NCBI RefSeq assembly: GCF_900537115.1
Contig: NZ_UNRG01000006.1
Span: 72,547-136,546, forward strand
Length of the DNA: 64,000 bases
Direction of reading: 5' to 3'
From: Arthrobacter sp. Alg241-R88
Lineage (GTDB): Bacteria; Actinomycetota; Actinomycetes; Actinomycetales; Micrococcaceae
How positions within the stretch are numbered: the first letter of the stretch is position 1; each line of letters starts with the position of its first letter. The notes under the pieces were generated by a model. That model ran no database searches. It was not told the origin of the DNA and saw only the letters and a list, made by a program, of their open reading frames with translations. The translations under genes and the position numbers were made by a program. Of the stretch, positions 57,401 through 61,088 are shown piece by piece.

Positions 57401-57589
57401 TCAGCGGACGCCGAGGTCGCTGTCAATATACGAACCCGGGCGGTTTTCAGTGCCATGCTGGCAATTGCAGCCACCATCCAGCTGCAGCCGAACGGTCACC
57501 GGACTCGGTGCTTCGAGCCGGATGTCAACCGGCTCCTTCCCGTTGCTGCTAAGGCTGAGAATTGATTCTTGGTCGTTGCCATGGGTCAT
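57401..57589 (-). CDS. Small hypothetical protein with GGCNC motif
   Basis: A 62-residue frame with AAAGG upstream of the ATG at 57589. The sequence has a short beta-like stretch (PVDIRLEAPSPVTVRLQLDG) followed by GGCNCQHG. Its C-terminus converges on terC. It is on the same strand as the formaldehyde dehydrogenase gene, 98 bases downstream and beyond a strong hairpin. Not recognised; could bind metal or zinc through the two Cys and His. Confidence 0.5.
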   Translation of the reverse strand: MTHGNDQESILSLSSNGKEPVDIRLEAPSPVTVRLQLDGGCNCQHGTENRPGSYIDSDLGVR

Positions 57590-57687: not shown

Positions 57688-58905
57688 TTACGCCTTGACG
57701 TATCCGTTCGGATTCAGCACGAATTTCGTGGCCGAGCCGGCGTCGAATTCGGCGTAACCGCGCGGTGCATCCTCAAGGGGGATCGCTGTGGCGTTTACTG
57801 CCTTGGCAATCTGGACCTTGTCGTGCAGGATCGCCATCATCAGCTGGCGGTTGTAGGACATGACGGGGCACTGGCCGGTGGTGAAGGACAGGGACTTTGC
57901 CCATCCGGTGCCCAAGGATAGCGACAGGGAGCCGTGCTTGGCGGCGTCGTCGATTCCACCGGGGTCGCCGGTGACATACAGGCCGGGAATGCCAAGGGCC
58001 CCGCCTGCGGCGGTGATGTCCATAAGGGAGTTCAGCACAGTGGCCGGGGCTTCGTGCGAGGCGTCCTTGCCGTGCCCCCGGGCTTCGAATCCTACGGCGT
58101 CCACGCCGCAATCCACTTCAGGAACGCCCAGAATTTGCTCGATCTGGTCCTTCGGATCGCCGTTGGAGACATTCACGGTTTCGCAGCCGAAAGAGCGGGC
58201 CTGAGCCAGCCGGTCTTCGTTCATGTCCCCGACAATTACGACGGCGGCACCGAGCAACTGCGCTCCGACGGCGGCCGCGAGGCCCACCGGGCCGGCGCCG
58301 GCAATGTAAACGGTGGATCCGACGCCCACACCGGCAGTGACGGCGCCGTGGAAGCCGGTGGGGAAGATGTCGGAAAGCATGGTCAGGTCCATGATCTTTT
58401 CCAGGGCCTGGTCGCGGTCCGGGAACTTGAGCAGGTTCCAGTCAGCGTAGGGAACCAGCACGTATTCCGCCTGGCCGCCCACCCAGCCGCCCATGTCCAC
58501 GTAACCGTAGGCGCTGCCCGGGCGGTCCGGGTTCACGTTCAGGCAGATGCCGGTCTTGCGCTCCTTGCAGTTCCGGCAACGGCCGCAGGAGATGTTGAAA
58601 GGTACAGAGACGATGTCCCCGACCTTGATGAACTCCACGTCCGGACCGACTTCCACCACTTCGCCGGTGATTTCGTGGCCGAGGACCAGGTCCTTGGGAG
58701 CCGTGGTCCGGCCCCGCACCATGTGCTGGTCCGAGCCGCAGATGTTGGTGGTCACTGTACGCAGGATCGCGCCGTGGGGTACCTTTCGGCCCACATTGGC
58801 CGGATTAACGCCGGGCCCATCCCTAAGTTCCAACGTCGGGTAGTCGGTGTTGATGATTTCGACGACACCGGGTTCTTTGTAGGCGACGGCTCTGTTTCCT
58901 GACAT
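57688..58905 (-). CDS. fdhA: Glutathione-independent formaldehyde dehydrogenase
   Basis: Zinc-dependent medium-chain dehydrogenase of 405 residues that oxidises formaldehyde with bound NAD. Catalytic zinc ligands: Cys in TNICGSDQHMVRG and the GHE motif; structural zinc cluster CGRCRNCKERKTGIC; long insert characteristic of the Pseudomonas putida FdhA branch (PGSAYGYVDMGGWVGGQAEY); Rossmann motif AGAGPVGLAAAVGAQ. Start at 58905 follows AAGGAG. Preceded by a highly structured leader. Lying beside choline and betaine aldehyde dehydrogenases, it probably removes formaldehyde made when betaine or sarcosine is demethylated. Confidence 0.93.
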   Translation of the reverse strand: MSGNRAVAYKEPGVVEIINTDYPTLELRDGPGVNPANVGRKVPHGAILRTVTTNICGSDQHMVRGRTTAPKDLVLGHEITGEVVEVGPDVEFIKVGDIVSVPFNISCGRCRNCKERKTGICLNVNPDRPGSAYGYVDMGGWVGGQAEYVLVPYADWNLLKFPDRDQALEKIMDLTMLSDIFPTGFHGAVTAGVGVGSTVYIAGAGPVGLAAAVGAQLLGAAVVIVGDMNEDRLAQARSFGCETVNVSNGDPKDQIEQILGVPEVDCGVDAVGFEARGHGKDASHEAPATVLNSLMDITAAGGALGIPGLYVTGDPGGIDDAAKHGSLSLSLGTGWAKSLSFTTGQCPVMSYNRQLMMAILHDKVQIAKAVNATAIPLEDAPRGYAEFDAGSATKFVLNPNGYVKA

Positions 58906-58930
58906 GGACACTCCTTTTAGTAGGGGTATG

Positions 58931-59135
58931 GTGCAAGGTCTTCCGTTCGGATGGCCTTGCACTGGCCCGGCAAAGTTGCAGGCTCTGCCCCATGCCCGAA
59001 AGCGGTGCTTCGATGAGGATACCTCCCCAGGTTTCAGGCCACCGAAGCACCCTTTACGGGCACGGGACAGCTCTTCCTTCGCGAGGGCGAAGGCTGTCAG
59101 TGGGATGCCGTGCCCAGTGGAACAGCATCCCGCTG
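58931..59135 (-). promoter_or_regulatory. Structured leader of the formaldehyde dehydrogenase gene
   Basis: Four stems in the 230 bases before the start codon: 59098-59108 with 59125-59135; 59076-59082 with 59087-59093; a long two-part arm pairing 58985-58998 with 59057-59070 (14 pairs, two G-U) that encloses a perfect 9-bp stem 59004-59012 with 59043-59051; and 58931-58938 with 58955-58962 just before the ribosome site. Wobble pairs in the long arm work only in the minus-strand RNA. No known riboswitch consensus was recognised. The rest of the gap to 59416 shows no gene. Confidence 0.5.
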
Positions 59136-59390
59136 CTGCCTGCCCGGCGCTGAATCGGACAAGTATGGGTCCGAAGTTCGAAGAGCCTGTAAGGATGAGA
59201 CTAGGGTCACAAGGCTTGCAATAAAAGCGCAAAGTCTTGGTGATAATCATGCGGAATAGCTGCATGATCGGTGCACGGCTCATCTCGCAACACGTGCGCC
59301 GGAAGGCTTCCGGAACCGGCCATAAACAGCACCGTCAGGACCGGGCAGCGCGTCCCGGGTTGGACCGTGCCACGGGTAGGTATTGCTACT

Positions 59391-59423
59391 GAGGGCTGAG
59401 GGCTAAGGGCTAAGGGCTAAGGG
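59391..59423. repeat. 7-base tandem repeat at the permease stop codon
   Basis: Four and a half units of RAGGGCT (59391-59423). The permease stop codon (59417-59419) lies inside the array, so copy-number changes would alter only the untranslated tail. Confidence 0.8.
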
Positions 59424-61018
59424 GTGGAAACGGGTGCGGACACCAGCTGAGGCGCAACTGGAGCATCCGGCCCGCTGACATCCATAGCCGCCTGGGCGGT
59501 TGCGGCGTGTTCAGCCAGGACGCCCGTCTGGTGCCTGATCTTCAGGCGGTACAGCAGTGCCCCGCCTCCGGCGACGGCGGCCACGAAGATCACGCCGCCC
59601 CACTGCAGGTACCACTCAAACGGGGGCACCGAGTTGTAGATCTCCGGGCGGGGCCAGATGAGGTTCAGGGTCATGGCGCCGCCCCACAGAACCGCGAGGA
59701 TGTTCACGGGCAACCCCCACTTGCCCAGGCTGAAGCCCGGCTCGGTGCCGTCATCGGCAAGCGGCCACTTTTTCTGGAACCGCTTGCGGAGCAGCGGAAC
59801 GGTGACCAGCAGGTAGGACAGGTAGATCAGGACGATGCTGATGCTGGAAAGGATGGTGAAGATGGCGGGCTGGGAGACGTTGACGATCAGCGGCATGATG
59901 GCGATGACACCGATGACGATGGCCGCCACCGTGGGCGTCTTCCGCTCGGGATGCACCTTGCTGAGCTGCCGGCTGAAGGGCAGGTTGTTATCCCGGGCCA
60001 TGGCGAACATCATGCGGATGGCGGCAGCGTGAACGGCCAGGGTGCAGACGGTCACGGCCACCACGATGCACACCAGGAACGCCTTGCCGAAGGGGCCCCC
60101 CAACACGGAGAGCACGATGTACTGCAGGCCGCCGTCGGCAGCGCCCAGCTTGGGGTCGTTGAGGTCAGGAGCGGCCAGGAGTCCGCCCAGGAGAATCAGG
60201 CCGCCGAGGATGAAGGACGCCGTGATGGCACGGAGGATGGCCTTGGGGGCGGTCTTTTTCGGGTCCTTCGTCTCCTCGCCCAGGGAACTGGCGGTGTCAA
60301 AGCCATACATCACGTAACCGGAGGCCATGGCGCCGATAAGGAACACCCCAAAGAAGCCAAGGTCGTGGTCCATGCCGTAGCCTTCGGTGCTGAAAAGAAC
60401 TTCCGGCCCCCGCACCACATGCCAGCCAAGGGCCAGGATGAGGAGCACGGCGGCGGCGAGCTCCACGAAGACGCCGATGCTGTTGATTTTGGTCATCAGC
60501 TTCACGCCGAAGGCGTTGATGAGGGTGGAGATGGAGATCATGATGCTGGCAAGCAGCACGCCGTTGAGGGCGAAATCGTAGGTGCCGGTGCCGTCGCCGA
60601 TGATCTGGAAACCGGACCAGATCTGGGGCAGGGTGAGCTGCAGGGCAAGGGCCACGGCGCCGAGCGCCACGATCGAGGAGATGAGCAGCAGCCAGCCCGC
60701 CAGCCAGGCGAACGTCCCGGACGAGAGCCGCTTGGCCCAGTTGTACACCGAGCCGGCCACCGGATACCGTCCGGCAAGCTCGGCGAAGCAGAGCGCCACC
60801 ATGAGCTGGCCGGCGAAAACGAGGGGCCAGGACCACGCGTAGGCAGGGCCGGCCATGGAGAAACCAAAGTAGAACAGCTGAAATACGCCGGTGAGAATGG
60901 AAATGTAGCTGACTCCGGCCGCGAAACTGGCGAATTTGCCGATGCTGCGGTCCAGGGTCTGGGCATAGCCGAACTCGTCCATGCCGCTTGAATCAGTACT
61001 CTTGCTGGGTTCGAACAT
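59417..61018 (-). CDS. APC-family amino acid/amine permease
   Basis: Twelve-helix amino acid-polyamine-organocation transporter of 533 residues. The conserved TM1 segment is FAAGVSYISILTGVFQLF and the TM6-7 family signature GYVMYGFDTASSLGEETKDP is present. Members of this branch carry amino acids, GABA or choline. Start at 61018 (MFEPSKS) follows TAGGAG; an ATG at 61075 lacks one. It lies between betaine-aldehyde dehydrogenase and formaldehyde dehydrogenase on the same strand, so choline or betaine uptake is a reasonable guess. Confidence 0.88.
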   Translation of the reverse strand: MFEPSKSTDSSGMDEFGYAQTLDRSIGKFASFAAGVSYISILTGVFQLFYFGFSMAGPAYAWSWPLVFAGQLMVALCFAELAGRYPVAGSVYNWAKRLSSGTFAWLAGWLLLISSIVALGAVALALQLTLPQIWSGFQIIGDGTGTYDFALNGVLLASIMISISTLINAFGVKLMTKINSIGVFVELAAAVLLILALGWHVVRGPEVLFSTEGYGMDHDLGFFGVFLIGAMASGYVMYGFDTASSLGEETKDPKKTAPKAILRAITASFILGGLILLGGLLAAPDLNDPKLGAADGGLQYIVLSVLGGPFGKAFLVCIVVAVTVCTLAVHAAAIRMMFAMARDNNLPFSRQLSKVHPERKTPTVAAIVIGVIAIMPLIVNVSQPAIFTILSSISIVLIYLSYLLVTVPLLRKRFQKKWPLADDGTEPGFSLGKWGLPVNILAVLWGGAMTLNLIWPRPEIYNSVPPFEWYLQWGGVIFVAAVAGGGALLYRLKIRHQTGVLAEHAATAQAAMDVSGPDAPVAPQLVSAPVSTP

Positions 61019-61088
61019 CTGAACTCCTAAGTCAGAAAAGCACGATGGTGATGACCCGTGGCCGCCGTTGGACACGGGTTATATCGGC

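What the first reader, a model, noticed from the sequence alone, without database searches (positions are those of the whole stretch)
58931..59135. Strongly structured leader on formaldehyde dehydrogenase, unknown class
Four consecutive stems, one with 14 pairs whose two wobble pairs exist only in the mRNA-sense strand, precede the gene. I could not match it to glycine, THF, guanidine or SAM riboswitches. A formaldehyde-, THF- or methylamine-linked regulatory RNA is conceivable.
Basis: partly seen in the sequence, partly recalled or inferred. Interest (0 to 1): 0.5.

Follow-up and report, generated by a model that had tools for sequence, protein, structure and literature searches.

The report
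New RNA hairpin beside formaldehyde-oxidation genes
Soil bacteria of the Arthrobacter group carry a conserved, apparently uncatalogued folded RNA next to genes that deal with formaldehyde and formate in glycine-betaine breakdown, which makes it a new candidate gene-control element whose trigger is still unknown.

Summary
The fdhA leader (minus strand) folds far better than shuffles (z -8.8 in the mRNA sense). Only the central stem (58985-59070) is shared beyond the window's clade: a long hairpin capped by a near-invariant CCUGAA-ACCU-GGGG-AGGU-A, with 19 of 34 pairs showing both-side changes in 76 sequences. In the inner helix G-U outnumbers A-C 207 to 1, so the selected molecule is RNA of the fdhA-sense strand. 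No Rfam family matches. A covariance model finds 63 copies in 62 of 101 genus genomes; 54 lie directly before fdhA or a second moeA. In the samples searched, only Sinomonas has it outside that genus. Its setting is a glycine-betaine and one-carbon cluster (purU, dmgO, folD, formate dehydrogenase, folE, fdhA, moeA, fdhD). It is kept after folD where moeA is gone, so it looks like a transcript-junction element rather than only a leader. Most members lack a T-run (9 of 76 have one) and pairing with the ribosome site (1 of 58). Riboswitch action is possible but unproven.

The parts
58985..59070 (-). S3, the conserved RNA motif: long hairpin (37 pairs in the window's fold) with an asymmetric apical internal loop
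59020..59038 (-). near-invariant cap CCUGAAACCUGGGGAGGUA (4-bp ACCU/AGGU helix with GGGG loop, CCUGAA on the 5' side)
   Evidence: CCUGGGGAGGU is invariant in A2 (76 sequences), but A2 members were picked by a pattern that requires it. Exceptions seen: L020 (GGGGAAGU, beside a broken moeA) and three Sinomonas loci (GGCA for GGUA)
58931..58962 (-). S4, hairpin between motif and ribosome-binding site in the window clade
   Evidence: no gaps in 16 of 16 leaders, 170 of 192 cells paired, 2 of 12 pairs with both-side change
59076..59093 (-). S2, short hairpin, absent from some relatives
   Evidence: gapped in 5 of 16
59098..59135 (-). S1, hairpin, absent from some relatives
   Evidence: gapped in 7 of 16
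58910..58919 (-). ribosome-binding site TAAAAGGAGT of fdhA
   Evidence: sequence; similar sites
57688..58905 (-). fdhA, glutathione-independent formaldehyde dehydrogenase
   Evidence: TIGR02819, 749 bits against a cut-off of 637
59178..59232 (-). probable promoter or operator block, shared with the lysR / Rieske-oxygenase intergenic region elsewhere in the same genome (84% identity over 55 nt)
   Evidence: in 14 of 16 distinct leaders by reading. The sigma-70 consensus scan found no site on this strand
59417..61075 (-). amino-acid permease gene upstream, same strand (not part of the motif)
   Evidence: PF13520

Best explanation
It is a new family of cis-acting structured RNA, carried in transcripts for glycine-betaine breakdown and one-carbon oxidation in Arthrobacter-group bacteria. 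It folds into a very stable hairpin whose near-invariant cap is recognised by a trans-acting factor (a protein or nuclease, or less likely a metabolite). It acts at a junction in the transcript, where it most likely sets how much message continues into, or survives for, the genes that oxidise formaldehyde and formate (fdhA, moeA/fdhD), separately from the folate genes in front (folD, folE, formate dehydrogenase). Shown: the RNA structure, the strand, the gene setting, the separate promoter-like block in the window clade, the persistence where moeA is absent. Inferred: the trans-acting factor, and control by attenuation, processing or stability.
For: Structure: 34 pairs, 93.5% of cells paired, 19 pairs changed on both sides, 0 of 500 shuffles as high on any of five measures; slid controls 37-49% paired. 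Strand: G-U 296 against A-C 24 (140 other mismatches) overall, 207 against 1 in the inner helix. Setting: 54 of 63 copies lie within 600 nt before fdhA (37) or moeA (17); 37 of 41 fdhA copies at least 92% identical to the window's have it. Of 48 genomes with two or more MoeA matches 44 have the motif, and the other four (G024, G058, G082, G100) hold one locus matched in two halves; 18 of the 62 motif genomes show one MoeA match only. Neighbourhood. In the window clade fdhA has a promoter-like block of its own. Junction role: in 10 loci of the folD-motif-transporter type the motif is 94% identical on average against 60% for the next 80 nt although moeA is gone; a 52-codon moeA remnant is left in A. 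liuii (L125 and L199 are the same contig). In Sinomonas gamaensis it follows a transporter stop by about 30 nt. Link to moeA: in G030 moeA is frame-broken and the cap beside it has changed. Three assemblies listed with two copies (ISL-65, ISL-30 and the MAG RL56_bin.044) have each copy beside its own cluster, which favours action in cis. The ribosome site pairs mainly with the motif in 1 of 58 leaders scored.
Against: No expression data. A T-run (5 of 8) near the stem end is present in only 9 of 76 members and no terminator-like site was found in the window leader, so termination is unproven. No binding protein was identified. A pure terminator or processing hairpin would not obviously need an invariant cap. 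Four of 41 close fdhA copies lack the motif (G041, G035, G026 and a fragment in G092). In the fdhA-alone loci the motif (89%) is hardly more conserved than the 80 nt after it (85%), so conservation alone does not single it out there. The 3'-end reading rests on the folD-transporter type and one Sinomonas genome, where the facing frame is only weakly supported as a gene (Pfam 20.1 bits against a cut-off of 23.5). The A2 structure was derived from A2 itself and the sequences are related.
Confidence: 0.45

Rival explanations
1. Riboswitch: the asymmetric loop and cap bind a one-carbon metabolite (a folate one-carbon form, formate, a formaldehyde adduct) or molybdenum cofactor and control fdhA or moeA.
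For: Compact near-invariant loop on a covarying helix; the cluster holds folD, folE, purU, formate dehydrogenase, fdhD, moaE. THF-II riboswitches are also simple hairpins with conserved nucleotides in an asymmetric bulge (PMC6800512, passages).
Against: The 108-nt stretches with the motif fold at about -43 to -76 kcal/mol, so the hairpin should form in any case; I saw no competing fold, though I made no systematic search for one. No shared ribosome-site occlusion and few T-runs. Kept where no fdhA or moeA follows. The 3' side of the loop varies from 2 to 8 nt between fixed points.
Confidence: 0.22
2. Plain 5'-leader translation control of fdhA or moeA, by a protein binding near the ribosome site or by S4.
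For: Motif end to fdhA start is about 35-95 nt in 37 copies; S4 sits beside the ribosome site in the window clade.
Against: The motif is retained in loci without a close downstream gene on the same strand; S4 was seen in the window clade only.
Confidence: 0.15
3. Ordinary intercistronic hairpin (terminator or stability element) without a sensing role.
For: Follows folD, folE or formate dehydrogenase in the multigene clusters; very stable stem; 9 of 76 have a T-run; position after a transporter stop in S. gamaensis.
Against: A near-invariant cap; one copy per genome save G061 with two; in the window clade it lies behind a promoter-like block.
Confidence: 0.12
4. Trans-acting small RNA encoded in the cluster.
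For: Neighbours vary on both sides; in L007 the motif starts a few nt after the promoter-like block.
Against: Among the loci examined it lies inside these clusters or before fdhA, and is duplicated with the clusters.
Confidence: 0.04
5. DNA-level element (protein-binding palindrome or mobile repeat).
For: Long inverted repeat.
Against: G-U to A-C ratio of 207 to 1 in the inner helix; one convincing copy in the window's genome.
Confidence: 0.02

Closest known systems
Moco RNA riboswitch candidate (Regulski et al. 2008, PMC2408646; abstract and section 5 read)
   Same: Linked to molybdenum-cofactor genes, here moeA, moaE and fdhD for a formate dehydrogenase
   Different: Moco RNA has up to five stems, with conservation round a multistem junction and a GNRA loop and receptor; this is one hairpin and Rfam's models do not hit it
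THF-II riboswitch (folE motif; PMC6800512, passages read)
   Same: Simple hairpin with conserved nucleotides in an asymmetric bulge; folate-related genes
   Different: THF-II has the ribosome site in P1 and precedes folE in Rhizobiales; here folE, where present, lies upstream of the motif, the ribosome site is outside the stem, and Rfam gives no match
Terminator-embedded HMP-PP riboswitch (thiS motif; PMC6478431, title and abstract start seen in the listing only)
   Same: An aptamer built into a hairpin would fit this anatomy
   Different: Few T-runs here; no sequence relation shown or tested beyond the Rfam scan
Orphan one-carbon motifs of Narunsky et al. 2024 (PMC11109978, passages), such as the fhsA motif of Leptotrichia
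   Same: Structured RNAs by one-carbon folate genes
   Different: Other lineage; the words Arthrobacter, moeA and formaldehyde do not occur in the main text; supplements not seen

Membership tests
Cis-acting structured RNA family (orphan motif) | compensatory base-pair changes beyond shuffles | tested here: met
   19 pairs, 160 cells, 0 of 500 shuffles; the structure came from the same alignment and no phylogeny-aware test was run
Cis-acting structured RNA family (orphan motif) | consistent gene setting and strand | tested here: met
   9 of 63 copies have neither fdhA nor an intact moeA close behind
Cis-acting structured RNA family (orphan motif) | non-coding | tested here: met
   spacings on both sides of the cap vary by single bases
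Moco RNA | match to the Rfam model | tested here: not met
Moco RNA | multistem junction with GNRA loop and receptor | tested here: not met
   single hairpin with GGGG loop; definition
THF-II riboswitch | match to the Rfam model | tested here: not met
THF-II riboswitch | ribosome-binding site in the right shoulder of P1 | tested here: not met
   site lies outside the stem; it pairs mainly with the motif in 1 of 58 leaders
Riboswitch in general | ligand binding | not testable with these tools
   needs in-line probing or ITC
Riboswitch in general | expression platform (alternative fold, ribosome-site occlusion or terminator) | tested here: inconclusive
   no shared ribosome-site pairing, T-run in 9 of 76; alternative folds not searched systematically
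Intrinsic terminator | T-run after a GC stem | tested here: not met
   none in the window leader; 5 T in 8 near the stem end in 9 of 76 members (for example L148, L205), so met in a minority only

The most novel reading that the evidence does not exclude
The hairpin is the aptamer of a new riboswitch class that senses the load of one-carbon units (a folate one-carbon form, formate or a formaldehyde adduct) or molybdenum cofactor, and gates formaldehyde and formate oxidation during glycine-betaine breakdown.
Probability: 0.2. Interest if true: 0.85.

Novelty: new member of a known kind. Interest (0 to 1): 0.55.

Why it matters
It gives a well-defined RNA family, with a model and named host genomes, tied to how soil actinobacteria dispose of toxic formaldehyde. 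It points to a post-transcriptional layer in betaine catabolism and offers a small construct for ligand or protein pull-down tests. If it senses a one-carbon metabolite it would be a new riboswitch class.

Tried and rejected
Rfam at gathering score on the window and on 18 of the 71 pattern loci: 0 matches; at E up to 10 eight sub-threshold matches, five of them microRNA models. Model searches in wider groups (stricter filters, sampled genomes): 45 of 395 family genomes, 8 of 396 order genomes, 6 of 394 class genomes. I read the weak hits outside the genus (G285, G722, G539, G156, G898, G870): they do not show the motif's fold and cap, so 44 of 395 family genomes stand. Pattern scan of named genomes: 71 loci; L158, L177, L185, L209 were dropped as chance because they do not fold like the motif.

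A trans-acting small RNA, a DNA palindrome and a small protein gene were considered and disfavoured. Ribosome-site occlusion and T-run termination were tested; the T-run part misplaced the stem end in about a dozen loci and is replaced. Phages: no match. Plasmids: one match, Arthrobacter sp. StoSoilB13, without annotation in the stretch. The sigma-70 scan found no site on the fdhA strand.

Literature (seven searches answered): 7 papers; riboswitch, moeA, Arthrobacter: 2 papers; any two of Arthrobacter, structured noncoding RNA, riboswitch: 124 papers, 15 listed, none of those 15 with the word Arthrobacter; 75 papers, 15 listed; 54, 12 listed; 6; 0. Beyond listings I saw the outline and section 5 of PMC2408646 and passages of PMC6800512, PMC8632094 and PMC11109978. 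Weinberg et al. 2017 is not held. So 'not in print' is limited to these searches and to Rfam 15.

Selections to bear in mind: A1 used 33 of the 57 distinct cores (odd or near-redundant ones such as L022, L056, L061, L066 left out; L020, whose cap differs, had been dropped before). A2 used 76 distinct cores that match the search pattern, so its central invariance is partly by selection; 18 further cores and three Sinomonas loci were left out. The fdhA list is the 41 matches of at least 92% identity; the MoeA list was picked by hand as the copies on motif contigs. The ten transporter-type loci were chosen by hand; in L154 the locus ends before the transporter.

Full report
The region. The finding lies upstream of a minus-strand gene, 57688-58905, that NCBIfam names glutathione-independent formaldehyde dehydrogenase, fdhA (TIGR02819, 749 bits, cut-off 637). 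Upstream on the same strand are an amino-acid permease, an aldehyde dehydrogenase and a GMC oxidoreductase, which from general knowledge looks like choline uptake and oxidation. The window lies on contig C6 of a 4.37-Mb genome.

The observation. The stretch 58931-59135 folds much better than shuffles, more so in the fdhA sense (z -8.81) than on the other strand (z -7.04). No Rfam family matches. So the stems are real and of no catalogued class.

What is conserved. A DNA search of 101 genomes of the genus found matches in 65, many of them covering only about query 170-256, that is S3 and its flank. The collected loci show S3 as a long hairpin with varying, compensating arms and a cap, CCUGAA, then ACCU-GGGG-AGGU, then A, that varies little. 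In 16 aligned leaders of the window clade S1 is gapped in 7 and S2 in 5, while S4 is kept there; I did not see S4 in the moeA-type leaders read.

Evidence for RNA. On 33 sequences RNAalifold gives 27 pairs, nine with both-side changes. On 76 sequences 93.5% of cells pair, 19 of 34 pairs change on both sides and no shuffle of 500 reaches the observed values; sliding the partners drops pairing to 37-49%. The structure came from the same alignment and the sequences are related, so this is strong but not phylogeny-corrected; the outermost pairs are the least regular. An independent sign is strand asymmetry: G-U cells 296 against A-C 24, and 207 against 1 in the inner helix. A DNA palindrome would show no such bias. 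Spacer lengths vary by single bases, so it is not coding.

Distribution. The covariance model R1 finds 63 copies in 62 of 101 genus genomes, 45 of 395 family genomes, 8 of 396 order genomes and 6 of 394 class genomes. Of the hits outside the genus, four genomes of one other genus are real: one (G281) has the contig length of a Sinomonas gamaensis record, so I take the genus to be Sinomonas. The other six (G285, G722, G539, G156, G898, G870) do not show the motif's fold and cap. The samples are partial and the filters strict, so other bearers may exist. A pattern scan of named genomes gave 71 loci: 67 in Arthrobacter, Pseudarthrobacter, Paenarthrobacter or Sinomonas gamaensis, and four by chance.

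Gene setting. Genes were called in 40 fetched regions and the window (39 of these 41 showed the motif by pattern), and 16 reference proteins were searched in these and the named loci. The recurrent order is purU, dmgO (dimethylglycine oxidase-like), folD, formate dehydrogenase, folE, motif, fdhA, moeA, fdhD, moaE, iclR, with losses and insertions. Names rest. FdhA, FdhD, FolE and PurU pass NCBIfam cut-offs; MoeA, FolD, MoaE, the oxidase-like protein and the formate dehydrogenase part do not, so their labels are family-level, and gbcA/gbcB for the Rieske oxygenase genes is recalled. Among 63 copies, 28 precede fdhA then moeA, 9 fdhA alone, 17 moeA directly, 9 something else. Those nine are six folD-motif-transporter loci (G003, G009, G011, G017, G056, G074), G004 (Rieske genes and fdhA further on), G090 (an fdhA fragment) and G030 (a moeA in four pieces of different frame, with a changed cap). 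Of 48 genomes with two or more MoeA matches 44 have the motif; the other four show one locus matched in halves.

Leader or junction. In the window clade fdhA has a promoter-like block of its own, shared with the intergenic region of a lysR-type gene and a Rieske oxygenase gene elsewhere in the genome, and in one relative (L007) the motif starts close behind it; there it is a 5' leader. Yet in ten loci of the folD-transporter type the motif stays 94% identical while the next 80 nt fall to 60%, moeA is absent, and the transporter has a separate conserved promoter-like block. For comparison the same two figures are 80 and 61% in 14 moeA loci, 79 and 66% in 20 fdhA-moeA loci, and 89 and 85% in 10 fdhA-alone loci, where the contrast is small. 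One transporter-type species, A. liuii, keeps a 52-codon moeA remnant. In S. gamaensis the motif follows a transporter stop by about 30 nt and faces a frame that is only weakly supported as a gene. A role limited to fdhA or moeA translation does not explain these; the G030 case, where cap and moeA decay together, does point to moeA.

Mechanism. The hairpin is very stable, pairs with the ribosome site in 1 of 58 leaders scored (six more had no site found) and has a T-run in 9 of 76 members. I therefore favour a constitutive hairpin read by a trans-acting factor at a transcript junction (0.45), with a riboswitch next (0.22). Neither the factor nor a ligand is shown, and alternative folds were not searched systematically.

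Comparison and novelty. Moco RNA and THF-II were compared from papers read in part (section 5 of PMC2408646; passages of PMC6800512) and fail on architecture and on Rfam match. The kind, a cis-acting structured RNA, is known; the family appears new within Rfam 15 and the searches listed.

Noticed in passing
window 59178-59392: The fdhA promoter-like block resembles the intergenic region of a lysR-type gene and a Rieske oxygenase gene, and a short plus-strand frame beside it (59237-59392) starts like that LysR protein, suggesting that this promoter was copied in front of fdhA.
   Followed up: partly
G000:C5:138033-139244: A second fdhA paralogue (86% identical), where the model finds no motif; two fdhA types run through the genus.
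   Followed up: partly
L125 and L199 (Arthrobacter liuii), after the motif: A 52-codon moeA remnant, pointing to loss of moeA between the motif and the transporter gene.
   Followed up: yes
L020 and L123 (G030): moeA after the motif lies in four pieces of different frame and the cap of the motif has changed.
   Followed up: partly
L121 (G093) and L149/L126 (G090): Short fdhA remnants between the motif and the next gene.
   Followed up: no
L132, L142 and related loci, between motif and transporter gene: A strongly conserved promoter-like block (TTGACA...TTGTTGCA...TTGTTGATCATCACGGAACGAA) before the transporter gene.
   Followed up: no
window 57401-57589: A 62-aa minus-strand frame after fdhA with no Pfam match; a similar frame follows fdhA in L005.
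   Followed up: no
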